A stretch of 64,000 bases of DNA, taken from positions 6,014,001 through 6,078,000 of the forward strand of contig NC_017093.1 in the NCBI RefSeq assembly GCF_000284295.1, given 5' to 3'. The notes beneath the pieces were generated by a model that searched no databases, was not told where the DNA came from, and saw only the letters and a program-made list of their open reading frames with translations. The stretch comes from Actinoplanes missouriensis 431. GTDB lineage: Bacteria; Actinomycetota; Actinomycetes; Mycobacteriales; Micromonosporaceae. Below are positions 42,069 through 62,837 of the stretch, in pieces (the first letter of the stretch is position 1; each line of letters opens with the position of its first letter). The position numbers and the translations under genes are program-made.

Positions 42069-42686
42069 TCAGGAGGCGACAGCCCCGCGCAGCACCGCGT
42101 CCACCAGCTTCTCCGCGAACCCCTCGTCCGGCACCAGGTGCTGCAGGCGCAGCATCGACTGGATCATCGAGGGGGCGGAGAGCATCAGCGCGGTCATCTC
42201 CACGTCCAGATCGGCGCGGAGCTCGCCGGTCGCGACGCCGCGTCGCAGCACCTCCCGCATCACCTCACGCCGCGGCTCGATGACCGCCTGGTGCATCCGG
42301 GCCAGCTCGTCGTCCTTGATCAGGTCGGGGAGCAGGCAGGCGGTGACCTTGCCGTAGCGCTGGGCGCGCGGCGTGCGGTTCGCCTGGATCAGGGCGATCA
42401 GATCCTCCCGCACCGACTGCCCGGCCAGCTCCGGCAGCGGGCCTTTCATGGCGCGGACCGCGTCGGCGATCAGCGCCTCCTTGTTCGGCCAGCGGCGGTA
42501 GATGGTGGCCTTGCCGACGCCGGCTCGCGCCGCCACCGCCTCGATCGAGACGGCGGCGGCACTCTGCCCGTCGCTGATCAGCGCCAGCACCGCGTCGAGG
42601 ATGGCCTCGTCGGCCTGGGCGTTACGGGGCCGGCCAGGAGCCTTACGCTCCTGGCCGGCGTCGGTGCTGGTGCTCATGGCGTTCAT
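42069..42686 (-). CDS. TetR-family repressor of the adjacent MFS exporter
   Basis: A 205-residue TetR protein: a charged N-terminal arm (GQERKAPGRPRNAQ), helix-turn-helix VSIEAVAARAGVGKATIYRRWPNKEALIADAV and a C-terminal domain of the TetR_C type. The start at ATG 42686 is 2 nt downstream of the MFS stop, so it is co-transcribed with the exporter; ATG 42677 is an alternative. The two 21-bp operators upstream of the exporter are its likely targets, giving autoregulation of the exporter-regulator operon. Confidence 0.92.
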   Translation of the reverse strand: MNAMSTSTDAGQERKAPGRPRNAQADEAILDAVLALISDGQSAAAVSIEAVAARAGVGKATIYRRWPNKEALIADAVRAMKGPLPELAGQSVREDLIALIQANRTPRAQRYGKVTACLLPDLIKDDELARMHQAVIEPRREVMREVLRRGVATGELRADLDVEMTALMLSAPSMIQSMLRLQHLVPDEGFAEKLVDAVLRGAVAS

Positions 42687-42688
42687 TG

Positions 42689-44287: not shown

Positions 44288-44314
44288 GGACTGGCGCCCC
44301 CGAAGACCATTTCC

Positions 44315-44383
44315 GATACGGAACGGTTCCGTATCACAAAGCAACCTAACGACCCCGGATGTGAAACGGAACGGTCTCGTATC
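44315..44383. promoter_or_regulatory. Two 21-bp TetR operators upstream of the MFS exporter
   Basis: The first site (44315-44335) is a perfect palindrome with 10-bp arms GATACGGAAC and GTTCCGTATC around one base. The second (44363-44383) matches it at 19 of 21 positions (arms GAAACGGAAC and GTCTCGTATC). Centres are 48 bp apart. Each resembles the ACGGAACGGTTCCGT-type operators of TetR-controlled DHA2 exporters. The sites lie 28-96 bp upstream of the MFS start. Confidence 0.88.
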
Positions 44384-44418
44384 GAAAGTAACCCCCGTCA
44401 CAGAGGTACGCCTCGAGA

Positions 44419-44470
44419 CAGCGTGGTGGCTCCGGGCGCGATCCGCACCCGGATTTCACCCGCGGGGGGA
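44419..44470. repeat. Dispersed 52-bp hairpin element, copy B
   Basis: Matches 24590-24641 at 43 of 52 positions, with the CCGGGCGCG-ATC-CGCACCCGG stem-loop conserved. Unlike copy A it lies between divergent genes, upstream of the second helicase, so it cannot simply be a bidirectional terminator. The following GCGAGCGAAGCGAGG run (44488-44502) is a separate low-complexity tract. Confidence 0.75.
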
Positions 44471-44551
44471 CGGCTCCGCGACGGGAGCGAGCGAAGCGAG
44501 GAAATACTGATTCGCCAGCGAAAACGGGTTCACTTACGTTGCAATCGGGAC

Positions 44552-47500
44552 ATGAGAGATGACCCGTCCGAATCCGCACAGGCTCGGACCGAGGTTCGGG
44601 CGGCGCTGCACGCGTGGCGGGACAGCCTCGTCGACCTCGGCGACACCAACCGGCTGATCAACTTCCCGACCGACAACCCCGACCTCGTGGAGATCGTCGG
44701 CCCGGAGCCGGAGAGCCTGGTCCGATCGCTGCACGCCGGCGCCGAGTGCCCGCTGGCCGGCACCGGCGCCGACCCGCAGCAGCACGCCGCCACCGACGAC
44801 CTGCTGCGCACCGAGATGCCGGACCCGGTTCTCGACGCCGCGCTGCGCCGGATGCTGAAGAAGTCCCGGCAGGAGTACCTGGACCGGGGCGTGTCCGTGC
44901 TGCACCTGGTGCTCGGCCTGCTGCGCTGGCGGGACGAGGAGGAGAACCCGTTCGCCAGCCCGATCCTGCTGATGCCGGTGGAGCTGGTCACCGCCGGTCC
45001 CGGCGACCCGCCCCGGCTGCGGCTGCGCGACGACGAGACGGTGCTCAACCCGGCGCTCGCGATCCGCCTGCGCCGCCTCGGCATGGAGGCCCCGGCCGTG
45101 GACGGGCACGCCGAACCGGACGTGTCCCGGATCTGGTCCGGGCTGCAGAGCGCCGTCGCCCGGCGCCGGGGCTGGCACGTGGAACGCACCGTGCTGCTCT
45201 CCTGCCTGACGTTCCACAAGGAGGCGATCTACCGGGACCTGCTGGTCAACGAGGACCGGATCCTGTCGCACCCGGTGGTGCAGGCGCTGGCCACCACGAG
45301 CGGGAAGCAGACCGGCACGTTCCGGTTCGCCCCGGTCCCGCCCGCGGTCGTCGACCGGGTCGCCCCGCCGGAGCACGTGCCGCTGGTGCTGGACGCCGAC
45401 GCCTCGCAGCGGGCCTGCATCGCGGCCGCCGTCGCCGGGCACAGCTTCGTGATGGACGGGCCGCCCGGCACCGGCAAGTCGCAGACCATCGCCAACATGA
45501 TCGGGTGCCTGCTGCACGCCGGCAAACGGGTGCTGTTCGTCTCCGAGAAGGCCGCCGCGCTGGACGTGGTGCACCATCGGCTCGTCGAGGCCGGGCTGGA
45601 CCGGTACGTCCTGGAGCTGCACGGGCACAAGGCCGGCCGCAAGGAGGTGGCGACCGCCCTCGCGGCCGCCCTGGACGACGGTCCCGCCCCGGTGGACGGC
45701 CCGGACCCGGCCGACCGGCGGGGCACCCGGGAACGGCGGGAGCAGCTCAGCGCGTACGCGACGGCGATGAACGAGACCCGGGCGCCGCTCGGCCGCAGCC
45801 TGCACAACGTGCTCGGGCTCTGCGCCCGCCTCCAGGACGCCCCGGCCGCGCCGGTCCCGGTGATCCAGCCGGACGCGGTGACCCCGGAGTCGGTGCGCCG
45901 GGTCATGCAGGCCACCGGCCGGCTCGCCACCGCCTGGCGGACCGTCGTCGACCGCGACGCCCTGCCCTGGCGTGACGTCGTCACCCGGGAGCCGCTCGAT
46001 CCGGCGCTGTCGGCGGCGGAGAGCGCGCTGGCCGGGCTGACCCGCGCGGTGCTCGCCGACCGGGCGCCGGTGGAGGCGTTCGGGCTGAGCGGCACCGAGG
46101 ACGCCGGGACCCTCGCCCGGCTCGCCGCGCACGCCGCCGCGCGGCCGCCGCACGTCAGCGACGCGTGGCTGACCGCGCCCGCCCTGGACGACCTGCGGCA
46201 GGCCGCCGAGGCGCTGGGCCGGGACCTGACCACGGTCCGGGCGGCCCGCGAGGCGGCCACCCGGCGGGCCGGCGCCTCCTGGTCGGCGCTGCCGGACGCG
46301 GCCGGGCTGCCCGAGGTGCCGGATCTGAGCGGGCTCACCCCACCGGCGGTCGAACTGGATCCGCTGACCGCCGCCGAGGCCGACCGGCAGGCCCGGCTCT
46401 GCACCGAGGCCGCCGACACCCTGGAACGCCACCGGGCCGTCGTGGACCGGGTCACCGCGAAGCTGGGTTTGCCGAACGCGGTGAAGGTCGCCGACATCGG
46501 CCGGGTGGCGACGATCGCCGAGCTCGGCGGCCGCCCGCACCGGCCCGAGCCGTTCTGGTTCTCACCGGGCGTGGCAGGCACCGTCGCGGCCGGGGCGCCG
46601 GCGCTGCGCCGGGCCCTGGAGAACCTGGTCGCCGCCGAGATGCGGGCCCGGCCGTTCTTCGCCGAGGCGATCCTCACCCAGCCGGTCGAGGAGCTCGCCG
46701 ACCGGTTCGCCCGGGTGCACCGGGGGTGGCGCAAGCTGCTCGGGGCGTACCGGAAGGATCGGCGGATCATCGCGGCGTTCGTGATGCCCACGGCCGCGGT
46801 GCGCGACGCGCTGCCCCGGCTGGAGACGGCGGTGGCCTGGCAGCGGGCCCGGCAGGACCTGACCGCGGCGGAGAGCGCGTACGGCGCCGCGCTGGGCCGG
46901 TACTGGCAGGGACCGGGCACCGACTTCACGGCGATCGACGAGGCGCTGGGCGTGGTGGAGACGGCGCTGCGGGCCGCGCCACCGGCCTCGGTGCCGGCGG
47001 TGGCCGCGTACGTCTGCGCCCCCGACCCGGACCCGGAGCTGATCCGTCTCGCGACCGGTGCCCGGGACGCCGTGCTGGCGAAACAGGCCGGCCTGCCGGA
47101 CCTCTCCCAGGGCCCGATCGACGCCGCGATCGAGTGGCTGCGGGAGAACGCCACGGCCCTCGCCGCGATCGCCGCGACGGTGCACGCCTACGACGTGGCG
47201 ACCGGGCGGACCCTGGACTACGCCGAGGTGCAGCGGCTGGGCCGGCTCCGGCGGGAGGTCGCCGAGGCGGAGGCGTCGATCGCCGGGAACGCCGGCACCT
47301 ACGCGGCGGTGTTCGGTGACGCGTACCGGGGTGGCGAGACCGACGAGGCGGCGCTCGCCGCCGCGGTGCGGTGGACGGCCGGCACCCGTACCCTGCTCAC
47401 CGGCGCCGACCAGCCGCTCACGGTGGCGCAGGCGAAGGCGCTGCACGACCTGCGGCCGGTGACCGGGCTGGACAGGCTGGCCGAGCAGTGGGCGCGGGCC

Positions 47501-49375
47501 CGGCAGGCGGTGCTCGACGCGTTCGGACCGGCACGGCGCGCGGAGCTCACCGCCGAGCTCGGCGATCCGGACCGGGCGGCGGCGTTCCTGCGGCGGATCC
47601 GCGGGGACGCGGACGGCCAGGAGGAGTGGTTCGCCGCGCTGGACGCCCGGGCCGTGCTCAGCGGGCACGGCCTGGACACGGTGGTGGAGTTCTGCGCGGA
47701 CCGCCGGCTCGACGCCGAGCAGGTGCGCCCGGCCGTGGAACGCGCGCTCTTCCGCGCCTGGGCGGACGCGGTGATCCAGGCCGACCACCGGCTGCGCCCG
47801 TGGCGGTCGGGCGACCGGGACCGCCTGGTCGCCGAGTTCCGGGCGCTGGACAGCCGGCTCGCCGCGGCGGCCGTCGGCGACATCGCCGAGTCCGTCGCCG
47901 CGCGCCGCCCGGACGGCGACGGCCCGGCCGCCGGCCTGCTGCGCCGCGAGGCCGTGAAGGCCAGCCGCCACCTGCCGGTCCGGGAGCTGATCGGCCAGGC
48001 CCGGGAGCTGGTCCTCGGCCTGCGGCCGTGCTTCCTGATGTCGCCGCTCACGGTCAGCCAGTCGCTGCCCGCGGACATCCGCTTCGACGTGGTGATCTTC
48101 GACGAAGCGTCCCAGGTCACCCCGGCCGACGCGATCAACTGCATCTACCGGGGCGCCGCGCTGATCACCGCGGGCGACGACCGGCAGCTGCCGCCGACCA
48201 GCTTCTTCGACCGGACGCTGGGTGGCGGCGACGAGCCCGAGCAGGAGCTCGCGGTCCTCGACTTCGAGTCGGTGCTGGAGCTGGCGAAGGGCTGCGGCGC
48301 GTTCGCCAGCCTGGGCCTGAACTGGCACTACCGCAGCCGGCACGAGGCGCTCATCGCGTTCTCCAACCACGCGTTCTACCAGGGCCGGCTCAGCGTCTTC
48401 CCGAGCGCGAACACCGGCGGGCCGGACACCGGGGTCACGCTGCTGCCGGCCGGCGGGGTCTACCGGCGCAGCACCACGCGGGACAACCCGGTCGAGGCCG
48501 AACGGGTGGCCGAGCGGATCGTGCACCACTTCACCACCCGGCCCGGCCTGTCGCTCGGCGTCGTCACGTTCTCGGTGGCGCAGGCCGAGGCGATCGAGCG
48601 GGCCGTCGAGGTGGTCGCGGCGGGCCGCCCGGAGCTGGAACGCATCCTCGACGACGACCGGCTGCACGGCTTCTTCGTGAAGAGCCTGGAGGCGGTGCAG
48701 GGCGACGAGCGGGACGTGATGATCTTCTCGATCGGGTACGGCTACGACGAGGCCGGCAAGATCAGTGCCAACTTCGGGGCGCTGAACCGGCCGAACGGCT
48801 GGCGGCGGCTCAATGTGGCGATCACCCGGGCCCGGTACCGGGTGGAGATCGTCACGTCGATCCTGGCGCGGGACGTGCCGGAGACCGACAACGAGGGTGT
48901 CCGGCTGCTCGCGGAATACCTGGAGTACGCCGAGCGCGGGCCGGCCGCACTGGACGTCGCGGTCCCGGCGGCGCAGGCCGACGGCGCGGACGGCCCGTTC
49001 CAGGAGTCGGTCATGGACACCCTGCGGTCCTGGGGCTACCCGGTGCAGGCGAACCTGGGCTGGGCCGGCGGCCGGGTCGATCTCGGCGTCCGGCGGCCGG
49101 ACCGGCCGGACAACGGGTACCTGCTCGGGATCCGGTGCGACGGTGGCGCGTACGGCGGGTGCACCGCCGCCCGCGACCGGGACCGGCTCAGTGAGCAGGT
49201 GCTCCTCGGGCTCGGCTGGAACCTGCACCGGATCTGGTCGATCGCCTGGTACCGCGACCGGGCCGGTGAGGAGGCCCGGCTGCGCGCGGCGCTGGAGGTG
49301 GCCGCCGGCAGCCCGCGCGCCAAGCTCACCGAACGGCGGAATCTGGTCGCGGTGCCGTCACCGGCCGGCTCGTGA
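44552..49375 (+). CDS. Large SF1 helicase (COG1112/DUF4011-type) with Vsr-like nuclease domain, copy 2
   Basis: A 1607-residue paralogue of the protein encoded at 408-5837, collinear from the N-terminus (ALHAWRDSLVDLGDTNRLINFP) to the nuclease domain. Walker A GPPGTGKSQT lies near residue 303, Walker B VVIFDEASQVTPAD near 1184, then GDDRQLPPTSFFD, LNWHYRSRHEALI, QGDERDVMIFSIGYGYD and LNVAITRARYRVEIV. The terminal MTES_1575-like domain (about 1475-1570) keeps the first catalytic Asp (GRVDLGV) but has GIRCDGGAYGG where the family has GIECDG..YH, so the catalytic Glu is Arg and the following His is Gly. Unlike copy 1 it lacks the DUF3320-like tail and the minisatellites. ATG 44552 was chosen by alignment with copy 1; the huge open extension upstream is an antisense shadow of the MFS gene. 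The end overlaps the convergent dehydratase gene by 50 nt. Confidence 0.88.
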   Translation: MRDDPSESAQARTEVRAALHAWRDSLVDLGDTNRLINFPTDNPDLVEIVGPEPESLVRSLHAGAECPLAGTGADPQQHAATDDLLRTEMPDPVLDAALRRMLKKSRQEYLDRGVSVLHLVLGLLRWRDEEENPFASPILLMPVELVTAGPGDPPRLRLRDDETVLNPALAIRLRRLGMEAPAVDGHAEPDVSRIWSGLQSAVARRRGWHVERTVLLSCLTFHKEAIYRDLLVNEDRILSHPVVQALATTSGKQTGTFRFAPVPPAVVDRVAPPEHVPLVLDADASQRACIAAAVAGHSFVMDGPPGTGKSQTIANMIGCLLHAGKRVLFVSEKAAALDVVHHRLVEAGLDRYVLELHGHKAGRKEVATALAAALDDGPAPVDGPDPADRRGTRERREQLSAYATAMNETRAPLGRSLHNVLGLCARLQDAPAAPVPVIQPDAVTPESVRRVMQATGRLATAWRTVVDRDALPWRDVVTREPLDPALSAAESALAGLTRAVLADRAPVEAFGLSGTEDAGTLARLAAHAAARPPHVSDAWLTAPALDDLRQAAEALGRDLTTVRAAREAATRRAGASWSALPDAAGLPEVPDLSGLTPPAVELDPLTAAEADRQARLCTEAADTLERHRAVVDRVTAKLGLPNAVKVADIGRVATIAELGGRPHRPEPFWFSPGVAGTVAAGAPALRRALENLVAAEMRARPFFAEAILTQPVEELADRFARVHRGWRKLLGAYRKDRRIIAAFVMPTAAVRDALPRLETAVAWQRARQDLTAAESAYGAALGRYWQGPGTDFTAIDEALGVVETALRAAPPASVPAVAAYVCAPDPDPELIRLATGARDAVLAKQAGLPDLSQGPIDAAIEWLRENATALAAIAATVHAYDVATGRTLDYAEVQRLGRLRREVAEAEASIAGNAGTYAAVFGDAYRGGETDEAALAAAVRWTAGTRTLLTGADQPLTVAQAKALHDLRPVTGLDRLAEQWARARQAVLDAFGPARRAELTAELGDPDRAAAFLRRIRGDADGQEEWFAALDARAVLSGHGLDTVVEFCADRRLDAEQVRPAVERALFRAWADAVIQADHRLRPWRSGDRDRLVAEFRALDSRLAAAAVGDIAESVAARRPDGDGPAAGLLRREAVKASRHLPVRELIGQARELVLGLRPCFLMSPLTVSQSLPADIRFDVVIFDEASQVTPADAINCIYRGAALITAGDDRQLPPTSFFDRTLGGGDEPEQELAVLDFESVLELAKGCGAFASLGLNWHYRSRHEALIAFSNHAFYQGRLSVFPSANTGGPDTGVTLLPAGGVYRRSTTRDNPVEAERVAERIVHHFTTRPGLSLGVVTFSVAQAEAIERAVEVVAAGRPELERILDDDRLHGFFVKSLEAVQGDERDVMIFSIGYGYDEAGKISANFGALNRPNGWRRLNVAITRARYRVEIVTSILARDVPETDNEGVRLLAEYLEYAERGPAALDVAVPAAQADGADGPFQESVMDTLRSWGYPVQANLGWAGGRVDLGVRRPDRPDNGYLLGIRCDGGAYGGCTAARDRDRLSEQVLLGLGWNLHRIWSIAWYRDRAGEEARLRAALEVAAGSPRAKLTERRNLVAVPSPAGS

Positions 49376-51280: not shown

Positions 51281-52678
51281 ATGGGCCTGCGCGACTACCT
51301 CGGCGTCGCCAAAAGACACTGGTGGCTGGTGACGGCCTGGGTCCTCGTCGCGCTCGGCGCCGCCACGGTCGTCACCTTCAACACCACCCCGGTGTACGCG
51401 GCCCGCGTCACCTTCTTCTTCACCGCCCCGATGGCCGCCGCCGCCGAGCTCTACCCCGCCAGCATGTTCAGCACCAGCCGCCTCGCCACGTACGCCGCCC
51501 TGCTCACCAGCGACGAGATAGCCGCCCCGCTCGCCGCCATGCCGGAAGTGGGCCTGAGCGCCACCGAGCTGGCCGAGCGGATCAGCTCGGAGACGATCGC
51601 CGACACGGTCCTGATGGAGGTCACGGTGGAAGACCCGTCGCGGCGACGTGCCCTGTTCGTCACCGAGAAGCTGTCGGTGCTCTTCAAGGACGCCGTGGAG
51701 AACCTGGAACGGCAGCAGACCGCCTCGGCGATCCGGGTCGAGGTGGTCGACGGGCCGCACCTGGAACCGGACCCGGTCGAGCCGCAGCCGCTGAACAACC
51801 TCGCCCTCGCGCTGATGGGCGGCCTGATCATGGGGGCCGGATCGGCGGTGCTCCGCGAGATCGCCGACAGCACGGTGCGCAGCGCGGACGCCCTGCAGAC
51901 GCTCACCAGCGTGCCGGTGCTGGCCCGGATCCCGCTCGACGGCCGGGTCCCGTCCCAGGCCGGCCCGTTCGTGTCGGCGCACGACTCGCCCCGCACCGAG
52001 GCGCTGCGCCAGGTCCGCACCCTGCTGCAGTCGGCCGCCGCCGAGCAGTCGCTCAAGACGCTCGCCGTCACCAGCGCGGTCCCCGGCGAGGGCCGGTCGT
52101 CGACCACGTGCAGCCTGGCCCTGCTCTTCGCCGAGACCGGTCAGCGCGTCCTGGTGGTCGACGCCGAGCTGCGCCGGCCCCGGCTGGCCCGGTTCCTCGG
52201 CCGGGAGACGGCGACCGGCCTGAGCACGGTGCTCAGCGGGAGCGCCACCGTGGAGCAGGTGATCCAGCCGTGGGGCGCCGGGCTCTGGCTGCTCGCCGGC
52301 GGGCAGAGCCCGCCGAACCCGAGCGAGCTGCTCAGCTCGCCGCGGATGACCGAGGTGGTGGACGAGGTGCGCCGCCGCTTCGACGTGGTGATCTTCGACT
52401 GCCCGCCGCTGCTGCCGGTCACCGACGGCGAGGTCATCGCCGCCCGCGCCGACGGCACGCTGCTGGTGGTCCGTTACGCCGGCACCTCCGGCGCGGAGGT
52501 CACCGGCGCGGTCCGGGCGCTGCGCGGGGTGAACGCGACGCTGCTCGGTTGCGTGCTGAACATGGTGCCGCTCAAGGGCCCGGACGCGTTCCCGCGCTTC
52601 GAGCAGTACACCGCGACGCCGAAGACCCGCCGGGGTGGCCGCCGCCGGGCACCCCGCCTGCTGGAGATGGCGGCATGA
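51281..52678 (+). CDS. Wzz-type chain-length determinant fused to BY-kinase-like domain
   Basis: A 465-residue polysaccharide co-polymerase. TM1 (about 14-34) and TM2 (about 174-190) bracket an extracytoplasmic Wzz domain. The cytoplasmic BY-kinase-like domain (from about 245) has Walker A SAVPGEGRSSTT, Walker A' VLVVDAELRRP and Walker B VVIFDCPPLLPVTD. The Walker A lysine is replaced by Arg, A' has DAE instead of DxD, and the tail has only one Tyr and no Tyr cluster, so kinase activity is doubtful. It heads the operon: ATG 51281 follows GGGGAGG, and its stop overlaps the next start by 4 nt. Probable role: control of polymer length by the Wzy system. Confidence 0.9.
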   Translation: MGLRDYLGVAKRHWWLVTAWVLVALGAATVVTFNTTPVYAARVTFFFTAPMAAAAELYPASMFSTSRLATYAALLTSDEIAAPLAAMPEVGLSATELAERISSETIADTVLMEVTVEDPSRRRALFVTEKLSVLFKDAVENLERQQTASAIRVEVVDGPHLEPDPVEPQPLNNLALALMGGLIMGAGSAVLREIADSTVRSADALQTLTSVPVLARIPLDGRVPSQAGPFVSAHDSPRTEALRQVRTLLQSAAAEQSLKTLAVTSAVPGEGRSSTTCSLALLFAETGQRVLVVDAELRRPRLARFLGRETATGLSTVLSGSATVEQVIQPWGAGLWLLAGGQSPPNPSELLSSPRMTEVVDEVRRRFDVVIFDCPPLLPVTDGEVIAARADGTLLVVRYAGTSGAEVTGAVRALRGVNATLLGCVLNMVPLKGPDAFPRFEQYTATPKTRRGGRRRAPRLLEMAA

Positions 52679-53433
52679 GCGCGGACCGTCCCGTCGCGGC
52701 GCCGGGCGGCCTGAGCACCCCCGCCGAGCGGCAGGTGCCCGGGCGGATCGCGGAGATCTTCGACAGCAGCCCGGACGACCTGCCCACCCGGCTGGCGAAC
52801 CTGACCCGGTACGCCCGGCGCGCCCAGGTGACCCGCTTCGCCGCGCTGTACGAGCTGTTCAAACTGGCGCTGCCGGTCAAGGGCTCGATCGTCGAGTGCG
52901 GCGTCTTCCGTGGTGCCAGCTTCATGACGTTCGCCCAGCTCAGCGCGGCGCTGGAGCCGACCAACCTGACCCGGCGGATCTACGGGTTCGACTCGTTCGG
53001 CGGCTTCCCGCAGGTTTCCGAGGCGGACCGGCCGGAGACCACCGAGGTGCGTGCCGGTGACCTCGCCGCGGACAGCTACGACGAGTTGAACCGGCTGCTG
53101 GAGGTCTACGACACCGACCGTTTCCTGGGTCATCTGCCGAAGGCGCGGCTGATCCGCGGCGACGTCACCGAGACGATCCCGGCGTTCGTGGCGGAGAACC
53201 CGCACCTGGTGATCAGCCTGCTCTTCCTCGACCTGGACCTGTACGAGCCGACCCGGGTGGCGCTGAAGGAGTTCCTGCCCCGGCTGCCCCGCGGCGCGGT
53301 GCTCGCCTTCGACGAGCTGGACAACCCGCTCTGGCCGGGCGAGACGTCGGCGGTCCTGGACGAGGTCGGGCTGAACCGCCTGGAGCTGCGGCGGTTCGAT
53401 TTCGACCCGTACATCGGATATGCGGTGATGTGA
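52675..53433 (+). CDS. TylF/MycF-family SAM-dependent O-methyltransferase
   Basis: A 252-residue methyltransferase. SAM-binding GSIVECGVFRGASFMTFAQL, YGFDSFGGFPQV and the family motif LLFLDLDLYEPTRVALKEFLPRL with AFDELDNPLWPGET are characteristic of TylF/MycF, which methylate sugar hydroxyls with Mg. It is encoded by the second gene of the operon and starts within the previous stop (ATGA). Most likely it O-methylates a sugar of the polysaccharide repeat or a cap. Confidence 0.9.
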   Translation: MSADRPVAAPGGLSTPAERQVPGRIAEIFDSSPDDLPTRLANLTRYARRAQVTRFAALYELFKLALPVKGSIVECGVFRGASFMTFAQLSAALEPTNLTRRIYGFDSFGGFPQVSEADRPETTEVRAGDLAADSYDELNRLLEVYDTDRFLGHLPKARLIRGDVTETIPAFVAENPHLVISLLFLDLDLYEPTRVALKEFLPRLPRGAVLAFDELDNPLWPGETSAVLDEVGLNRLELRRFDFDPYIGYAVM

Positions 53434-53434
53434 C

Positions 53435-54244
53435 GTGGACTCCCTGTCGCTCGCCCGCGCGGTCCGCGCCCACGTGCTCCGGATGACGAGCACCGGCCGC
53501 AGCTCGCACGTCGGCTCCGCGCTCTCCTGCGCCGACCTGCTGGCCGTCCTCTACGCCGGCGTGTTGCGGGTCGACCCGGAGCACCCGGAGTGGCCGGACC
53601 GGGATCGCGTGATCATGAGCAAGGGGCACGCCGGCGCCGCCCTCTACGCGGTCCTCGCCGAGTCCGGTTTCTTCGACGCGGCGGTGCTGCACCGGCACTA
53701 CCAGAACGGCTCGTTCCTCTCCGGGCACGTCAGCCACGTCGGCATCCCGGGCGTCGAGTTCTCCACCGGCTCGCTCGGCCACGGCCTGCCGGTCGGCGCC
53801 GGGTTGGCCTGGCGGGCCCGGCAGACCGGCCGCGAGTGGCGCACCTACGTGCTGCTCGGCGACGGCGAGTGCGACGAGGGGAGTGTCTGGGAGGCGGCCA
53901 TGTTCGCCGGGCACCACGAGCTGGCGACCCTTGTCGCGATCGTCGACTACAACCGCATGCAGTCGCTCGGCACGACCGACGAGACGCTGCGGCTGGAGCC
54001 GTTCGCCGACAAGTGGCGCTCGTTCGGCTGGGACGTCGTGGAGGCCGACGGGCACCACCACGCCGAACTGCTCCCGGCGCTGCGGGTGCCGCGGACCACC
54101 GAGCGGGCCCGGCCGCGCTGCGTGCTCGCGCACACGGTCAAGGGCAAGGGCGTCTCGTTCATGGAGAACCAGGTGCTCTGGCACTACCGGCCGCCGTCGG
54201 CCGAGGAGCTGGAACGGGCGCTGGCGGAGGTGGGCGCCGGATGA
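53435..54244 (+). CDS. Transketolase-like TPP enzyme, N-terminal subunit
   Basis: A 269-residue protein equal to the pyrophosphate-binding half of transketolase. RSSHVGSALSCADLLAVLYAGVL, DRVIMSKGHAGAALYAVLAE and the TPP motif LLGDGECDEGSVWEAAMFA followed by VDYNRMQS are intact. GTG 53435 begins 1 nt after the methyltransferase stop. The second half is the next gene, so the active enzyme should be a heteromer carrying TPP at the subunit interface. In glycan clusters such enzymes can transfer or add a two-carbon ketol unit; the actual substrate is unknown. Confidence 0.92.
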   Translation: MDSLSLARAVRAHVLRMTSTGRSSHVGSALSCADLLAVLYAGVLRVDPEHPEWPDRDRVIMSKGHAGAALYAVLAESGFFDAAVLHRHYQNGSFLSGHVSHVGIPGVEFSTGSLGHGLPVGAGLAWRARQTGREWRTYVLLGDGECDEGSVWEAAMFAGHHELATLVAIVDYNRMQSLGTTDETLRLEPFADKWRSFGWDVVEADGHHHAELLPALRVPRTTERARPRCVLAHTVKGKGVSFMENQVLWHYRPPSAEELERALAEVGAG

Positions 54245-55191
54245 GGAACCGGTTCTTCAGCGGCCTGCTGACCGCCGCGCTGGTCGACCCGGACCTGGTG
54301 CTGATCACCGCGGATCTGGGGTTCGGCGCGGTCGACGACTTCGCCGCGGCGCGGCCCGGGCAGTTCGTCAACGCCGGGGTGGCCGAGCAGAACATGGCCG
54401 GGCTGGCCGCCGGGATCGCCCTGGCCGGCGGCCGGGTGTTCACCTACTCGATCGCGAACTTCCCGACCCTGCGCTGCCTGGAGCAGATCCGCAACGACAT
54501 CTGCTACCACCACGCGGACGTGACGGTGGTGGCGGTGGGCGGCGGGCTGGCGTACGGGGCGCTCGGCATGTCCCACCACGCCACCGAGGATCTGGCGATC
54601 ATGCGGGCGCTGCCCGGGATGGCGGTCGCGGCGCCCGGCGACCCGGCCGAGGTGGACGCCGTGCTGTCCGACCTGCTGGCCGGGGGCGGGCCGGCGTACC
54701 TGCGGCTCGGCAAGACCGGTGAGCGCATGCTGCACACCGGCGGGGTGTCCGCGCCGCGCGGCACGTCGATCCCGCTGGGCGGCACCGGCGGCGAGGTGCT
54801 GCTCTGTTCGACGGGAGCGATCCTCGACGCCACCTGCGACGCCGCGCAGCTGTTACGGGCCAAGGGGATCCGCGCCGACGTGCGCTCGTTCCCCTGGCTC
54901 GACCCGTTCGACGCCGTCGCGGTCCGGCAGGCGGCCGGCGAGTACGAGGCGCTGATCACCGTCGAGGAGCACTCGATCGTCGGCGGCCTGGGCAGCGCCG
55001 TCGCCGAGGTGCTCGCCGAGTCGGCCGGCGGCACGCCGCTGATCCGGATCGCCCTGCCACCGACCTCGTCCTCGGTCGTCGGGGACCAGCAGTACCTGCG
55101 CGCCGCGTTCGAGCTGGACGCCGAGTCGATCAGCCGGCGCGTCCGCAACCACCTGGAGGCGAACCGTGGACTGGCGAGTCAGATTCGTTGA
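54241..55191 (+). CDS. Transketolase-like TPP enzyme, C-terminal subunit
   Basis: A 316-residue partner carrying the pyrimidine-binding and C-terminal domains: LITADLGFGAVDDF, FVNAGVAEQNMAGLAAGIALAGG with the catalytic Glu of the family (GVAEQNM), FTYSIANFPTLRCLEQIRND, and the C-terminal ITVEEHSIVGGLGSAVAEVLAE. ATG 54241 overlaps the N-subunit stop by 4 nt, favouring equal synthesis of both subunits. It makes a second, split transketolase-like enzyme separate from any pentose-phosphate transketolase. Confidence 0.92.
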   Translation: MRNRFFSGLLTAALVDPDLVLITADLGFGAVDDFAAARPGQFVNAGVAEQNMAGLAAGIALAGGRVFTYSIANFPTLRCLEQIRNDICYHHADVTVVAVGGGLAYGALGMSHHATEDLAIMRALPGMAVAAPGDPAEVDAVLSDLLAGGGPAYLRLGKTGERMLHTGGVSAPRGTSIPLGGTGGEVLLCSTGAILDATCDAAQLLRAKGIRADVRSFPWLDPFDAVAVRQAAGEYEALITVEEHSIVGGLGSAVAEVLAESAGGTPLIRIALPPTSSSVVGDQQYLRAAFELDAESISRRVRNHLEANRGLASQIR

Positions 55192-56281
55192 CTACCCCGA
55201 GCAGTGGCGGCGGCAGCGGGCCGAGCTGCTGCCGATCATCGAGGACACCATCGCGCGGGGCGACCTCATGCTCCGCCGGCAGCTGCACGACTTCGAGGAG
55301 CATCTGGCCGCGTTCAACCACTCGGCCCGCGCGGTCGGGGTGAGCAACTGCACCGACGGGCTGCGGCTGCTCGCGCACGCGCTGGACATCGGGCCGGGCG
55401 ACGAGGTGGTCACGGTGGCGCACACCTTCATCGCCACGGTGTCGCCGTTCGTGCTGCGCGGCGCGAAACCGGTCTTCGTCGACATCGGGACGGACCACCT
55501 GATGGACACGACCCAGCTGGCCGCGGCGATCACCGAGCGGACCCGGGTGGTCATCCCGGTGCACCTCAACGGCCGTACCGTCGACATGCACGCGGTCGGC
55601 AAAGCCGCCGCGTCCGCCGGGGCGGTCGTCCTGGAGGACGCCGCGCAGGCCCTGGGCGCCACGTTCGACGGCCGGACCGCCGGGACGTTCGGGCTGGCCA
55701 GCACGTATTCGTTCTACCCGGCGAAGATGCTCGGCGCGCTCGGTGACGCCGGCGCGGTGCTCACCGACGACCAGGAGCTGGCGAACCGGCTGCTGCGGCT
55801 GCGCGACCACGGCCGGGTGCAGAAGGCCGAGATCGACGGCTGGGGTTACAACTGCCGGCTGGACAACCTGCAGGCCGCGATCCTGGACTACCGGCTGGGC
55901 AGGCTGCCCGGGTGGATCGAGCGGCGGCGCGAGCTGGCCCGCCGGTACGACGAACGCCTGCGCGACATCGACGGCCTGCGCATCCCGGTCGGGCCGGACG
56001 CCGACCCGCTGCGCCGCGACGTCTACCAGAACTACCCGGTCACCACCGAGCACCGGGACCGGCTCGCCGAGCACCTGCGCGCGGACGGCATCGAGACGCT
56101 GGTCTCCTGGCCGATCCCGCTGCACCACCAGCGCGGGCTGGGCCTGGACCACTGGAAGCTGCCGCGCACCGAGGAGCTCTGCCGCCAGGTGCTGTCGCTG
56201 CCGATGCAGGTCGAGCTGGAGGACTGGCAGATCGACCACGTGGCGGACAGCATCCACCGGTTCTTCGGGAGACCGGCATGA
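55166..56281 (+). CDS. DegT/DnrJ/EryC1/StrS-family sugar aminotransferase 1
   Basis: A 371-residue PLP enzyme. The PLP-binding region has GVSNCTDGLRLLAHAL, VVTVAHTFIATVSPFVLRGAKPVFVDI, VLEDAAQALGA and the Schiff-base Lys in STYSFYPAKMLGALGDAGAVL. Family members transaminate nucleotide-linked 3- or 4-keto sugars. The GTG start at 55166 lies 26 nt inside the transketolase gene and is supported by GGAGGCGAACC. It is closest in pattern to FdtB/QdtB/PglE-like enzymes and would use the keto sugar made by the divergent dehydratase. Confidence 0.93.
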   Translation: MDWRVRFVDYPEQWRRQRAELLPIIEDTIARGDLMLRRQLHDFEEHLAAFNHSARAVGVSNCTDGLRLLAHALDIGPGDEVVTVAHTFIATVSPFVLRGAKPVFVDIGTDHLMDTTQLAAAITERTRVVIPVHLNGRTVDMHAVGKAAASAGAVVLEDAAQALGATFDGRTAGTFGLASTYSFYPAKMLGALGDAGAVLTDDQELANRLLRLRDHGRVQKAEIDGWGYNCRLDNLQAAILDYRLGRLPGWIERRRELARRYDERLRDIDGLRIPVGPDADPLRRDVYQNYPVTTEHRDRLAEHLRADGIETLVSWPIPLHHQRGLGLDHWKLPRTEELCRQVLSLPMQVELEDWQIDHVADSIHRFFGRPA

Positions 56282-57273
56282 CCCTGCCCTTCCTCAGCGT
56301 GGTCATCCCCTGCTGGAACGAGGCCCGTTTCGTGGCCGCGTTCCTCGACTCGGTGTTCGCCACCACCTACCCGGCGGACCGGATGGAGGTGCTGCTCGTC
56401 GACGGGATGAGCGACGACGGCACCCGCGAGATCGTCCGCCACTACGCGCTGCGCGACCCGCGGCTGGTCCTGGTCGACAACCCGGGACACAGCAAACCCG
56501 CCGCCCTCAACCTCGGCATCCGGCAGGCCAGGGGCGACGTCGTGGTCCGTCTCGACGTGCACGCCGAGTACCCGCCGGACTATCTGGAGAGCTGCGTCCG
56601 GGGCCTGGTCGAGCACCCGCGGGCGGACAACGTCGGCGGGATCCGGATCTCCCGGGCCCGCGACGACACGCTGCTGGGCCGGGCCATCGCGCTCTCCACC
56701 ACCAGCGTGTTCGGTGCCGGGAACTCGAAGTACCGGGTCGGCGCCTCCGGGCCGCAGTGGGTCGACACGGTGTTCGGCGGCTGCTACCGCAAGTCCGTCT
56801 TCGACCGGATCGGCCTCTTCGACGAGCAGCTCACCCGTGCCCAGGACCGGGAGTTCAACCATCGGCTGCGGGCGTCCGGCGGCAGCATCCTGCTGCTTCC
56901 GGAGATCACCTGTACGTACTACGCGCGCAGCGACTTCCGGGAGTTCTGCTCGTGGACGTTCGAGGCCGGGTACTGGCCGTTCCGGGCCAGCCGCACGGTG
57001 GGCCGCTGGATCGGGTCGTGGCGCAACGTCGTACCCATGGGATTCGTCCTCGCCCTCGCGGCCGGCGCCGCGGCAGCCCCCCGCAGCCGGACGGCCCGGC
57101 GTGCGACCGCCGTGGTGCTCGCCACCTACGGGCTCACCGCGCTCACCTTCGCCGCCCGCCTGGCCCGGCAGCACCGGGACCCCGGCCTGGTCGTGGCGCT
57201 GCCGCCGGTCTTCCTCGCCACTCACGTGATCTACGGAGCCGGCTCACTCAAAGGGGCCCTGGAGCGGACATGA
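56278..57273 (+). CDS. GT2-family glycosyltransferase, ExoA-like
   Basis: A 331-residue membrane-associated glycosyltransferase. LSVVIPCWNEARFVAAFLDSV, VLLVDGMSDDGTREIV and the acidic VVVRLDVHAEYPPDYLESCV (DxH in place of the classical DxD, as in ExoA-like proteins) are followed by the acceptor-side RAQDREFNHRLRASGG. Two or three C-terminal hydrophobic helices (about 245-325) anchor it. It is the only obvious sugar-adding glycosyltransferase in the operon besides the initiating phosphoglycosyl transferase. ATGA overlaps occur at both ends. Confidence 0.92.
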   Translation: MTLPFLSVVIPCWNEARFVAAFLDSVFATTYPADRMEVLLVDGMSDDGTREIVRHYALRDPRLVLVDNPGHSKPAALNLGIRQARGDVVVRLDVHAEYPPDYLESCVRGLVEHPRADNVGGIRISRARDDTLLGRAIALSTTSVFGAGNSKYRVGASGPQWVDTVFGGCYRKSVFDRIGLFDEQLTRAQDREFNHRLRASGGSILLLPEITCTYYARSDFREFCSWTFEAGYWPFRASRTVGRWIGSWRNVVPMGFVLALAAGAAAAPRSRTARRATAVVLATYGLTALTFAARLARQHRDPGLVVALPPVFLATHVIYGAGSLKGALERT

Positions 57274-58307
57274 GCGACATCCTGCACTACTACCGGGGCC
57301 GGGTCGCCCTGCACGCGATCCTCGAGGGCCTGGGCGCCGGTCCGGGCGACGAGGTCGTCGTCCAGGCCTACACCTGCGCCGCCGTGGTCGAGCCGCTGCT
57401 GCGCCTCGGGGTGCAGCCGGTCTACGCGGACATCTCCCGGGACACCTTCGGCCTCGACCCGCAGCGGCTCCCGGCGCTGCTCACCCGGCGTACCCGGGCG
57501 ATCGTCGCGCAGCACACGTTCGGCATCCCGGCCCCGATGGCGGCGATCACCGCGATCGGCCGGGAGCGCGGCATCCCGGTGATCGAGGACAGCGCGCACA
57601 TGACGCCCGGCACCGTGGCCCGCGCCGACTCGGTCGCCTCGTTCTGGTCGTTCGAGTGGGGCAAGCCGGTGGTGGCCGGCGTCGGCGGGACGGCCGTCGT
57701 GCACGATCCGGGGCTGGCCGCCGAGATGCGCCGCGGCTACCACCGGTACACCTCACCGCCGCCGCTGCGGGAGGCGATGATGGCCGCCGAGTACCTCGCG
57801 TACCGGATGGCGGCCGGCACCGGCATGCTCTGGCGGCTGCGCACCCTGTACCGCCGCCTGTCCCACGCCGGCGTGGTCACCGGCTCCTACTCCCCCGACC
57901 CGCTGACCAGCCCGGAGTACGGCTGGCGGATGAGCCGCAGCGTCCGCTGGCGGCTGCCGTCCCGGATCGTCACGGGTCACGCCGAGGCGGCCCGGCGCCG
58001 GCACGCCACCGGCCGGGACCTCGGTTACGTGCCGCACCGGATCCCGGTGGTCGTCGGCGACAAGGACCGGGTGCTGCGCGAGGCGGCCGCGGCCGGGCTC
58101 GAGGTCGGCGACTGGTTCACCACGCCGGTCCACCCGCTCGCCGGAGGTGACCTGGCCGCCGTGGGCTACCGGCCCGGCAGCTGTCCGAACGCCGAGTGGG
58201 CCGCTGCCCACGTGGTCACCCTCCCGGTACGCGCCGGCACCCGTCCCGCCGACCTCGACCGGGCCCTGGCCCGCCTCGCCCGGATCGAGGCGAGCGTCCA
58301 TGCCTGA
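57270..58307 (+). CDS. DegT/StrS-family aminotransferase 2
   Basis: A 345-residue PLP enzyme of the DegT fold, shorter and more divergent than the first: ILEGLGAGPGDEVVVQAYTCAAVVEPLLRLGVQPVYADI, RAIVAQHTFGIPAP, PVIEDSAHMTPG and Schiff-base Lys in SFWSFEWGKPVVAGVGGTAV. The C-terminal domain has VGDWFTTPVHPLAG. A role in making an amino sugar is likely, but the unusual SFEWGK context might mean a different keto-sugar or a non-aminating function. It overlaps the GT2 stop by 4 nt and the next gene by 8 nt. Confidence 0.85.
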   Translation: MSDILHYYRGRVALHAILEGLGAGPGDEVVVQAYTCAAVVEPLLRLGVQPVYADISRDTFGLDPQRLPALLTRRTRAIVAQHTFGIPAPMAAITAIGRERGIPVIEDSAHMTPGTVARADSVASFWSFEWGKPVVAGVGGTAVVHDPGLAAEMRRGYHRYTSPPPLREAMMAAEYLAYRMAAGTGMLWRLRTLYRRLSHAGVVTGSYSPDPLTSPEYGWRMSRSVRWRLPSRIVTGHAEAARRRHATGRDLGYVPHRIPVVVGDKDRVLREAAAAGLEVGDWFTTPVHPLAGGDLAAVGYRPGSCPNAEWAAAHVVTLPVRAGTRPADLDRALARLARIEASVHA

Positions 58308-59604
58308 GCGTTTTCGTGTCGTCAGCGGGCCGTTCACCGACCGGCAGATCGCCGCGGTGGCCCGGTTGCACGCCGCCGAGGTGCCGGAGGGATTCCTCTC
58401 CTCGCTGGGCGAGCCGGTGCTGCGGCTGCTCTACCGGCACGTGGCGAACAGCCGGCTGGGCGTGGTGCTGCTCGCCGAGAGCGCCGACACCGGTGAGCCG
58501 CTCGGCTACATCTGCGGCGCGATCGACACGTCGGCGCTCTTCGCGGAGTTCGCGCGGCGGCGGTGGGCGTCGGCCGTACCCCTGCTGGTGCCGCGGCTGA
58601 TGCACCCGGCCCGCGCCCGGCGGATGCTGGAGACGCTCGCCTATCCCGGATCCTCGGATCCGGGCCTGCCCCGTGCCGAGATCCTGAACTTCGTGGTGAC
58701 GCCGGCGATGCGCGGCCGGGGGGTGGCGGCGCTGCTCTTCGAGAACCTGATGGGCTGGTTCCGGCACCACGGCGTGCCGGCGGTGAAGGTGGTGACCGGG
58801 GAGCAGCAGCGGCGGGCGCAGGGCTTCTACGAGAAGTCGGGGAGCGCGCTGCACGGGCACACCGCGATCCACCGCGGTTCGCAAAGCCGGATTTATGTTC
58901 ATAAGCTGGTAGAAGGTGGTTACGCTCCGAGAGTGACCCCACGCTACGACGCGATCAAGCGGGCCATGGATGTCGCCGTCGCCGCGGTCGTGCTCACCGC
59001 CACCGGCCCGGCCGCCGCCGCGGTGGCCTGGCGGATCAAGCGGGAGGACGGCGGCCCGGTCCTCTACCGGGGCACCCGTATCGGCAGGTACGGCAAACCG
59101 TTCGCGATGCTCAAGTTCCGCAGCATGGTGGTCGACGCGTCCCGGCTCGGCGGGCCGTCCACCGCCGACGACGATCCGCGCCTCACCCGTACCGGGAAGT
59201 TCCTGCGCCGGTGGAAGCTCGACGAGCTGCCGCAGCTGGTCAACGTGCTGATCGGCGACATGAGCCTGGTCGGCCCGCGCCCGCAGGTCGCCTCCGACGT
59301 GCAGCGCTACACCGCCGAGGAGATGCGGCTGCTGGACGTGCGGCCGGGCATCACCGACTGGGCGTCGATCGTCTTCCACGACGAGGGCGCGATCCTGGCC
59401 GGGCACGAGGACGTCGACCGCGCCTACGACGAGCTGATCCGGCCCGGCAAGATCGCGCTCGGTCTCGCGTATGTGGAGAACCGCGGTCTCGGCACCGACC
59501 TGCGGATCATCGCGCTCACCGCGCTGGCCCTGCTCGGGTACCGCCGCACCACCGAACTGCTGCAGCGCGAGGTTCCGCTCGACCTGGCGCGCATCCGGCG
59601 TTGA
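58300..59604 (+). CDS. GNAT acetyltransferase fused to PglC/WcaJ-like phosphoglycosyl transferase
   Basis: A 434-residue open frame without interruption. Residues 1-205 form a GNAT acyltransferase: acetyl-CoA loop TPAMRGRGVAALLFENL, then QQRRAQGFYEKSGSALHGH. Residues from about 212 form a small monotopic phosphoglycosyl transferase: YDAIKRAMDVAVAAVVL (re-entrant helix), GPVLYRGTRIGRYGKPFAMLKFRSM, the catalytic DE in WKLDELPQLVNV, and IGDMSLVGPRPQ. Such enzymes start glycan assembly by moving a phospho-sugar to undecaprenyl phosphate. The linker (nt 58882-58932) uses A/T-ending and rare codons (ATT, TAT, GTT, CAT, GTA, AGA), quite unlike the rest, and an in-frame GTG at 58933 could start a separate 223-residue transferase. 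Either a true fusion or two genes merged by loss of a stop. Confidence 0.9.
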   Translation: MPERFRVVSGPFTDRQIAAVARLHAAEVPEGFLSSLGEPVLRLLYRHVANSRLGVVLLAESADTGEPLGYICGAIDTSALFAEFARRRWASAVPLLVPRLMHPARARRMLETLAYPGSSDPGLPRAEILNFVVTPAMRGRGVAALLFENLMGWFRHHGVPAVKVVTGEQQRRAQGFYEKSGSALHGHTAIHRGSQSRIYVHKLVEGGYAPRVTPRYDAIKRAMDVAVAAVVLTATGPAAAAVAWRIKREDGGPVLYRGTRIGRYGKPFAMLKFRSMVVDASRLGGPSTADDDPRLTRTGKFLRRWKLDELPQLVNVLIGDMSLVGPRPQVASDVQRYTAEEMRLLDVRPGITDWASIVFHDEGAILAGHEDVDRAYDELIRPGKIALGLAYVENRGLGTDLRIIALTALALLGYRRTTELLQREVPLDLARIRR

Positions 59605-62195: not shown

Positions 62196-62819
62196 CTACA
62201 ACCGGCGGATCACGCACACCACCTTGCCCAGCACCACTGCCTCATCACCCGGGATGATCTGGAACAGCGGGTTCCGCGGCACCAGCTCCACCCGGCTCCC
62301 TCGCCGCCGGAGCACCTTCACCGTCGCCTCGCCCTCGATCATCGCCGCGACGATGTCGCCGTTCTCCGCGACCGGCTGCTGGCGCACCACCACCACGTCC
62401 CCGTCACAGATAGCCGCGTCGATCATCGAGTCGCCCTTGACGTTGAGGGCGAAGAACGTGCCGTGCCCCACCATCCCGGCGGAGACGGTGAGGTGGTCCT
62501 CGACGTTCTGCTCGGCGAGGATCGGTGTGCCGGCCGCGATGTCGCCGAGCACCGGCACGCTGATCGTCCGGTCGGCCGAGGGGCTGCGCACGTCGACGGC
62601 GCGCGACCCGTGCGGCTGTCGCCGGAGGAGACCGTGCCGTTCGAGAACCTTGAGGTGGTGGGTCACCGAGGAGGGCGACACGAGCCCGACGGCGGCGCCG
62701 ATCTCGCGGACGGTCGGAGGGTACCCCCGGTCGCGGATCGACTCGTGGATCACGGCGAGGATGCGCTCCTGCTTCGCGGTGATGGGGCGCTTCGGCCCGT
62801 CACCACTGTCGATGCTCAT
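62196..62819 (-). CDS. lexA: LexA-family repressor/autoprotease
   Basis: A 207-residue LexA homologue. The winged helix-turn-helix ([53 protein letters not shown]) is followed by the S24 domain with Ala-Gly cleavage site in [13 protein letters not shown], catalytic Ser in [11 protein letters not shown] and Lys in EATVKVLRR. It would self-cleave when RecA is activated. ATG 62819 has AAGGTG at 6 nt; a GTG at 62828 is an alternative. No canonical actinobacterial SOS box is visible upstream, and the protein is at the short end for actinobacterial LexA, so it may be a second, specialised paralogue. Confidence 0.92.
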
Positions 62820-62837
62820 GTGCCGCACCTTACCCGA

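What the first reader, a model, noticed from the sequence alone, without database searches (positions are those of the whole stretch)
58300..59604. GNAT acetyltransferase fused to a phosphoglycosyl transferase
One uninterrupted frame encodes an N-terminal GNAT domain and a C-terminal PglC/WcaJ-like transferase. Neisseria PglB also joins an acetyltransferase to a phosphoglycosyl transferase, but with a left-handed beta-helix domain in the reverse order. This looks like a convergent solution that acetylates the amino sugar on the enzyme that loads it onto lipid.
Basis: partly seen in the sequence, partly recalled or inferred. Interest (0 to 1): 0.65.

Follow-up and report, generated by a model that had tools for sequence, protein, structure and literature searches.

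The report
Acetyltransferase fused to sugar-loading membrane enzyme
A soil bacterium joins, in one protein, an enzyme that probably acetylates an amino sugar and the enzyme that loads the first sugar of a polysaccharide onto its membrane carrier; some relatives still keep the two as separate neighbouring genes, so the fusion looks recent.

Summary
In detail: window 58300-59604 is one open frame of 434 aa, an N-terminal GNAT domain (Pfam hit 116-181) followed by a monotopic phosphoglycosyl transferase (PGT, 220-412). The protein is evidently AMIS_56760 of Actinoplanes missouriensis; both domains are already annotated in print (PMC13390465), and deleting its cluster gave no phenotype. All seven fused linkers are multiples of three without a stop. 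In the window's clade the junction keeps a promoter-like low-GC stretch and an in-frame start codon, so a separate PGT may also be made. Gene context supports the acetylation reading: this GNAT subfamily sits near the initiating PGT, usually of the polytopic kind, in other actinobacterial classes (30 of 30 loci examined in one class) and on one Rhodobacteraceae plasmid. In Actinoplanes it comes with a six-gene set, and the PGT tracks that set. The sugar, the acetyl position and both activities are untested. New variant of a known kind (bifunctional PGTs such as Neisseria PglB).

The parts
58300..59604 (+). GNAT-PGT fusion gene (evidently AMIS_56760), 434 aa
   Evidence: ORF and Pfam; domain boundaries and gene order as in PMC13390465
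58300..58914 (+). GNAT acetyltransferase domain; R138, G139 and A143 invariant and G141 at least 90% in orthologues; H24, F32, L33, L36, G37, L44, Y45, R108, E111, E127, H191, S196 invariant in the wider subfamily alignment
   Evidence: PF00583; alignments A1 and A5; GNAT matches in Foldseek
58881..58932 (+). AT-rich stretch at the junction with rare ATT and TAT codons and TACGCT at 58921-58926, six bases before an in-frame GTG; proposed remnant promoter of the PGT
   Evidence: the window's junction holds the lowest-GC 50-bp window of 5252 scanned; codon counts; inference, no transcript data
58933..58935 (+). in-frame GTG (V212), candidate internal start for a separate PGT of 223 aa
   Evidence: sequence; an in-frame ATG or GTG stands at linker codon 12 or 13 in five of seven fused loci (window, G076, G143, G140, G186), at codon 8 in G204, none in G206
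58933..59604 (+). monotopic phosphoglycosyl transferase domain with Asp308-Glu309 (LDELPQ)
   Evidence: PF02397; Foldseek best hits PglC 8g1n and 8e37, WbaP 8t53; alignment A2
57270..58307 (+). DegT2, short DegT/DnrJ/EryC1/StrS aminotransferase; overlaps the fusion gene by 8 nt (start chosen by eye)
   Evidence: PF01041; found only in GNAT+ stretches
56278..57273 (+). GT2 glycosyltransferase
   Evidence: PF00535
55166..56281 (+). DegT1 sugar aminotransferase; closest solved relatives 7b0d, 2oga, QdtB 3frk, WbpE
   Evidence: PF01041; phmmer; found only in GNAT+ stretches
54241..55191 (+). transketolase C-terminal half as a separate gene
   Evidence: PF02779 and PF02780; found only in GNAT+ stretches
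53435..54244 (+). transketolase N-terminal half as a separate gene
   Evidence: PF00456; found only in GNAT+ stretches
52675..53433 (+). TylF-like methyltransferase
   Evidence: PF05711; found only in GNAT+ stretches
51281..52678 (+). Wzz joined to a tyrosine-autokinase-like domain
   Evidence: PF02706, TIGR01007
59601..60875 (+). Wzx-like flippase; TTG start overlaps the fusion gene's stop
   Evidence: PF01943 below its cut-off; expected to be Wzx in PMC13390465
60872..62119 (+). Wzy-like polymerase (start chosen by eye)
   Evidence: PF04932

Best explanation
A bifunctional initiator of a Wzx/Wzy exopolysaccharide pathway. The cluster's aminotransferases make an amino sugar; the GNAT domain N-acetylates it from acetyl-CoA; the PGT domain then transfers the acetylated sugar-1-phosphate to undecaprenyl phosphate; GT2 extends it and Wzx/Wzy export and polymerise it. 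The fusion arose within the genus by loss of the stop between two neighbouring genes. In the window's clade the old PGT promoter and start codon probably survive inside the fused gene, so both the fusion and a free PGT may be made; in G206 the linker holds no ATG, GTG or TTG in frame, so a whole separate PGT could not start at a usual codon. Shown: the fused frame, its conservation, the split relatives, the gene associations. Inferred: both activities, their order, the sugar, the internal start.
For: Domains well above cut-offs with motifs conserved; the model's PGT part matches PglC and WbaP, its GNAT part aminoglycoside acetyltransferases and other GNATs. Seven fused linkers, all multiples of three, no stop. 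In stretches of 17-20 kb, 11 of 11 GNAT+ loci also have TylF, both transketolase halves, DegT1 and DegT2, and 0 of 5 GNAT- loci have any of them. PGT is the shared gene that tracks this set most: mean identity to the window's group is 0.712 for the GNAT+ outliers and 0.576 for GNAT- loci, a drop of 0.136, against 0.057 (GT2), 0.035 (Wzx), 0.026 (Wzy, G219 missing) and -0.004 (Wzz). GNAT subfamily near a PGT elsewhere. Precedent: PseH, a GNAT, acetylates N4 of a UDP-4-amino sugar (passages of PMC7910423). Single fusion favoured by a tree of eight other cluster genes, support 81/83.
Against: No activity measured; deletion of the whole cluster gave no visible phenotype (PMC13390465). The cluster has no recognised 4,6-dehydratase, so the amino sugar's origin is unknown. 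The same PGT family stands without the GNAT in five clusters. The single-gene GNAT and PGT trees put split A. rectilineatus beside or among fused members with modest support, which would need a second change. The promoter scan found no sigma-70-like site at the junction, and the TACGCT motif was chosen after seeing it. In the broad sample the GNAT, where fused, is fused to GT4, not to the PGT.
Confidence: 0.58

Rival explanations
1. The GNAT acts after the PGT, on the lipid-linked amino sugar, not on the nucleotide sugar.
For: The same GNAT subfamily shares an open frame with a GT4 glycosyltransferase in other Actinomycetota (three clear cases; six plus one cut case of 30), which would suit a membrane-side substrate between PGT and GT4.
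Against: Known acetyltransferases of this step act on nucleotide sugars (PseH; PglD recalled).
Confidence: 0.2
2. The GNAT acetylates a different sugar of the repeat unit, and the fusion only secures equal expression.
For: PGT of the same family stands in five clusters without the GNAT; two aminotransferases and a transketolase suggest an unusual sugar; no dehydratase among the cluster proteins scanned.
Against: GNAT near a PGT of either fold in distant genomes; the PGT gene diverges with the presence of the set more than the other shared genes do.
Confidence: 0.15
3. The fused frame is incidental: the cell mainly makes GNAT and PGT separately from the internal start, the fusion being a by-product. 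(Overlaps in part with the best explanation, which allows two products.)
For: In-frame ATG/GTG at the old PGT start in the window, G076, G143, G140 and G186; TACGCT plus six bases before it in three of them; low GC at the junction; rare codons. Weaker activation of the two genes downstream on day 6 (PMC13390465) is compatible.
Against: G206 has no in-frame start in its linker; all seven linkers keep frame; internal initiation would not remove the upstream read-through product.
Confidence: 0.12

Closest known systems
Neisseria PglB (bifunctional acetyltransferase/PGT; passages of PMC11130364)
   Same: One protein joins an acetyltransferase to a PGT that starts a glycan on undecaprenyl phosphate
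   Different: Domain order reversed (PGT is N-terminal in PglB); acetyltransferase is GNAT here, left-handed beta-helix in PglB (recalled); no bacillosamine dehydratase found in this cluster
Bifunctional monoPGTs (Bi-PGT class; passages of PMC10942596)
   Same: Functional domain fused to an end of the monoPGT catalytic domain
   Different: GNAT partner; I could not read the survey that defines the class (O'Toole 2021, not held), so GNAT partners may be listed there
PseH (GNAT, UDP-4-amino sugar N4-acetyltransferase; passages of PMC7910423)
   Same: GNAT proposed for the same kind of chemistry
   Different: PseH is a separate enzyme of pseudaminic acid synthesis; no sequence comparison with it was made here
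AMIS_56760 in the wps-2 cluster (PMC13390465)
   Same: Evidently this very protein; GNAT and sugar-transferase domains reported by InterPro
   Different: The passages and sections that I read do not discuss the fusion, split relatives, the six-gene set or an internal start
GT4-GNAT open frames with a polytopic PGT alongside, in other Actinomycetota
   Same: Same GNAT subfamily, near the initiating PGT
   Different: PGT is of family PF00953 (WecA/MraY type, recalled) and the GNAT is joined to GT4, not to the PGT

Membership tests
Monotopic PGT superfamily (PF02397) | Bac_transf domain with Asp-Glu dyad | tested here: met
   181.8 bits against 27; D97-E98 of the domain invariant in the 11 rows of alignment A2; role of the dyad recalled
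Monotopic PGT superfamily (PF02397) | Fold of PglC/WbaP | tested here: met
   Foldseek ranks 1-4 are PglC and WbaP chains, E 4.8e-11 to 1.0e-10; model pTM only 0.55
Monotopic PGT superfamily (PF02397) | Transfer of sugar-1-phosphate to undecaprenyl phosphate | not testable with these tools
   no assay
Bifunctional monoPGT (Bi-PGT) | Functional domain fused to N- or C-terminus of the PGT | tested here: met
   single open frame in the window and six orthologues; definition from passages of PMC10942596
Bifunctional monoPGT (Bi-PGT) | Second domain enzymatically active | not testable with these tools
   only motif conservation
Neisseria PglB | PGT domain N-terminal | tested here: not met
   PGT is C-terminal here; PglB order
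Neisseria PglB | Left-handed beta-helix acetyltransferase | tested here: not met
   Pfam and Foldseek give GNAT; PglB fold recalled
Large monoPGT (WbaP/WcaJ type) | N-terminal four-helix bundle and extra domain; full-length TIGR03025/03023/03022 | tested here: not met
   scores under the cut-offs and only the C-terminal part of each profile matched
GNAT superfamily | Pfam Acetyltransf_1 and R/Q-x-x-G-x-G/A motif | tested here: met
   40.4 bits against 20.7; R138, G139, A143 invariant, G141 at least 90% in 11 orthologues; motif rule recalled
Nucleotide-amino-sugar N-acetyltransferase (PseH/WecD-like function) | Acetyl transfer to a nucleotide-linked amino sugar | not testable with these tools
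   context only

The most novel reading that the evidence does not exclude
A gene fusion caught in stages within one genus: two separate genes (G149, G201, G219, A. rectilineatus), a fused frame that still holds the second gene's promoter and start codon and makes two products (the window's clade), and an obligate fusion without that start (G206); and, more widely, a GNAT subfamily that is drawn to the initiation step of glycan assembly and has been joined separately to a monotopic PGT and to a GT4 that stands next to a polytopic PGT.
Probability: 0.4. Interest if true: 0.62.

Novelty: new variant of a known kind. Interest (0 to 1): 0.47.

Why it matters
It gives the acetylation-plus-loading step a second, structurally unrelated acetyltransferase, next to Neisseria PglB, and ties one GNAT subfamily to glycan initiation by both PGT folds, which would let function be predicted for many unnamed GNAT genes. 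The split, intermediate and fused states within one genus make the path from operon to fusion testable with ordinary methods in a harmless soil bacterium.

Tried and rejected
Rejected: artefact or frameshift error (six other genomes agree). No fusion seen outside the genus: in 200 genomes of the family the only matches over both domains in one frame are those of the genus (whose list of weaker matches is cut), and of 1006 plasmid records matched none has a place covering 80% of the query. The match over residues 126-412 in L015 (G024) I judged by eye to be spurious before residue 217: another frame there reads as an unrelated protein that stops at the PGT's ATG; itself gives only 216-412. The A1 profile found three stand-alone GNATs, all in one genus, among 393 other genomes of the class (the eight best candidates of each genome scored), with no PGT or cluster gene in 19 kb. 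DegT2 had no relative at E <= 1e-40 in 147 other genomes of the class.

Led nowhere: sigma-70 scan at the junction, none found, mean 0.2 in shuffles; one terminator-like hit at 58875-58889 was not followed. The structure model is weak at 166-210 and in domain placement, so no interface is claimed. PDB sequence searches gave no GNAT named as a sugar-nucleotide enzyme. Of ten phylum-level GNAT relatives the four weakest (L114-L117) have no PGT nearby. In the class of G644 (five genomes) only G644 itself matched; in the class of G778 six of 27 matched, three already known and three weak partial ones not examined. Four literature searches looked for the GNAT-PGT fusion itself. Of their listings I opened PMC13390465, which describes one, and PMC10942596, which names the class; the rest were seen as listings only and may hold more.

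Full report
What is there. The frame 58300-59604 encodes 434 residues without a stop. Pfam places Acetyltransf_1 at 116-181 and Bac_transf at 220-412, both above their cut-offs. The model from a 15-row alignment has mean pLDDT 73.7 and pTM 0.55, with 166-210 poor; Foldseek finds PglC and WbaP first and then GNATs, aminoglycoside acetyltransferases among them. The gene begins inside the end of DegT2 and its stop overlaps a TTG start of the flippase gene.

Already in print. A 2026 paper (PMC13390465; abstract, passages, section 15 and part 1 of 2 of section 17 read) describes the wps-2 cluster AMIS_56690-AMIS_56780 of Actinoplanes missouriensis. The cluster's transcription rises on day 6, weakly for the last two genes, and deleting it changed neither sporangia nor spore release. 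What I read of the paper does not discuss the fusion further.

Fused and split relatives. Of 67 genomes searched in the genus, the own one included, 10 hold the GNAT (E <= 1e-10) and 15 hold a close PGT (E <= 1e-50). A. rectilineatus was added from genome contigs, giving 11 GNAT+ and 5 GNAT- loci; the other three genus loci are G186 (A. utahensis), G149 (P. deccanensis) and G201 (P. atraurantiacus), judged by equal contig lengths. Seven are fused: window, G076, G143, G140, G206, G204, G186. Four are split: A. rectilineatus, G149, G201, G219. The distance from SR[IV]Y of the GNAT to KR of the PGT is 60, 66, 102, 66, 81, 48 and 63 nt in the fused ones, all multiples of three and stop-free; in the split ones it is 86, 133, 101 and 108 nt, each with a stop in the GNAT's frame. 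A tree of eight other cluster genes puts A. rectilineatus outside the fused seven (81/83); the GNAT tree puts it beside, and the PGT tree among, the four of the window's clade with modest support, which would mean two changes. One fusion is the simplest reading, not a certain one.

A possible second product. In the window the bases TACGCT (58921-58926) stand six bases before an in-frame GTG (58933). G143 and G140 have TACGCT and six bases before ATG; split G219 has it eight bases before GTG; split G149 and G201 have it upstream of an ATG with a Shine-Dalgarno-like stretch between; G076, G206, G204, G186 and A. rectilineatus lack it. The pattern TANNNT, 5-8 bases, then ATG/GTG precedes 64 of 18,542 ATG/GTG triplets on both strands of the window and 15 loci. 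The junction holds the lowest-GC 50-bp window of about 5.2 kb in the window, G143, G140, G204 and G149; a few windows are lower in G076 (3), G219 (4) and G201 (19), more in G206 (36) and A. rectilineatus (50), and 1559 in G186. ATA or ATT is used for 3 of 126, 2 of 141, 2 of 125 and 4 of 126 isoleucines in ten other cluster regions of window, G076, G143 and G140, yet for the isoleucine of SRIY in all four. These facts fit a retained promoter, perhaps with a leaderless transcript. They were noticed before they were counted, the genomes are related, and the general promoter scan found nothing. G206 has no ATG, GTG or TTG in its linker, so there a whole separate PGT could not start at a usual codon.

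The gene set. In stretches of 17-20 kb, all 11 GNAT+ loci carry TylF-like methyltransferase, both transketolase halves, DegT1, GT2, DegT2, GNAT, PGT and Wzx in one order (Wzy not found in G219's stretch); none of the five GNAT- loci has TylF, the transketolase halves, DegT1, DegT2 or GNAT there, while Wzz, GT2, PGT, Wzx and Wzy remain. The rest of those genomes was searched for the GNAT, not for the other genes. Among shared genes the PGT follows the set most closely: Wzz of the split outgroup (G149, G201, G219) is even nearer to the GNAT- loci (0.654) than to the window's group (0.538), whereas its PGT is nearer to the window's group (0.712 against 0.566). This suggests that the PGT belongs to the exchanged block and takes its product, or something near it; identities are not a rooted tree.

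The GNAT elsewhere. A Rhodobacteraceae plasmid (CP081164) holds LegC-type aminotransferase, UDP-GlcNAc 4,6-dehydratase, sugar transferase and a GNAT side by side; this GNAT is 32% identical to the window's over 190 residues. With it as query, 10 of 395 other Actinomycetota genomes matched. The six best (L108-L113) lie beside a polytopic PGT, PF00953 (in L108 on the opposite strand). In L110, L111 and L112 the GNAT is in one open frame with a GT4 glycosyltransferase (L109 is cut); Pfam shows both domains in L110 and L112, while in L111 the GNAT rests on tblastn. The four weakest have no PGT nearby. With a wider profile, A5, 36 of 228 genomes in the class of G636 matched. I examined the 30 matches that were given loci, out of 39 listed; the six genomes left out are mostly the weakest. 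By tblastn, 30 of 30 have a polytopic PGT in the fetched flank (in L143 about 0.9 kb away), 29 of 30 a GT4 (L148 is cut), 13 of 30 a DegT aminotransferase; the GT4 shares the GNAT's open frame in six plus one cut case; none has a monotopic PGT. Two of the 30 are the genomes of L112 and L113 again, the profile was built from GNATs already known to lie near a PGT, and much of this is one conserved operon, so these are not 30 independent events. Still, the subfamily is tied to glycan initiation with PGTs of both folds.

Mechanism. PseH is a GNAT that acetylates N4 of a UDP-4-amino sugar (passages of PMC7910423), so the chemistry has precedent. In Actinoplanes the amino sugar is unknown: DegT1's nearest solved relatives include C3 aminotransferases (2oga, QdtB and WbpE; positions recalled), no dehydratase was recognised in the cluster, and the split transketolase is unexplained. 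I therefore commit to 'acetylates the amino sugar that the PGT loads' and leave the position open. Two results speak against too simple a view: the PGT family stands without the GNAT in five clusters, and distant GNATs are fused to GT4 instead.

Verdict. The fusion is derived, seen only in part of one genus in my searches, belongs to the known class of bifunctional PGTs, and its two domains were reported in 2026. New here, as far as four literature searches on the fusion show (most of their listings not opened), are the split-to-fused series, the six-gene set, and the tie of this GNAT subfamily to both PGT folds.

Noticed in passing
window 52675-56281: A transketolase split into two genes with a TylF-like methyltransferase and a sugar aminotransferase, present in all 11 GNAT+ and none of the 5 GNAT- stretches compared. 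A split transketolase that moves a two-carbon unit onto another molecule is known from rifamycin tailoring (recalled), so a branched amino sugar is conceivable.
   Followed up: partly
L110, L111, L112, L119-L148: A recurring arrangement GT4 - GNAT - polytopic PGT, often with DegT, in other Actinomycetota, with GT4 and GNAT sometimes in one open frame.
   Followed up: yes
L094:7527-11167: A bacillosamine-type gene set on a Rhodobacteraceae plasmid in which a GNAT stands where a PglD-type acetyltransferase would be expected.
   Followed up: partly
window 51281-52678: Wzz and a tyrosine-autokinase-like domain are one protein.
   Followed up: no
window 42686-49375: A 2229-aa open frame with coding-like codon bias outside the cluster.
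   Followed up: no
window 62196-62828 (-): The ORF beyond the cluster reads like a LexA repressor (by eye, no search made).
   Followed up: no
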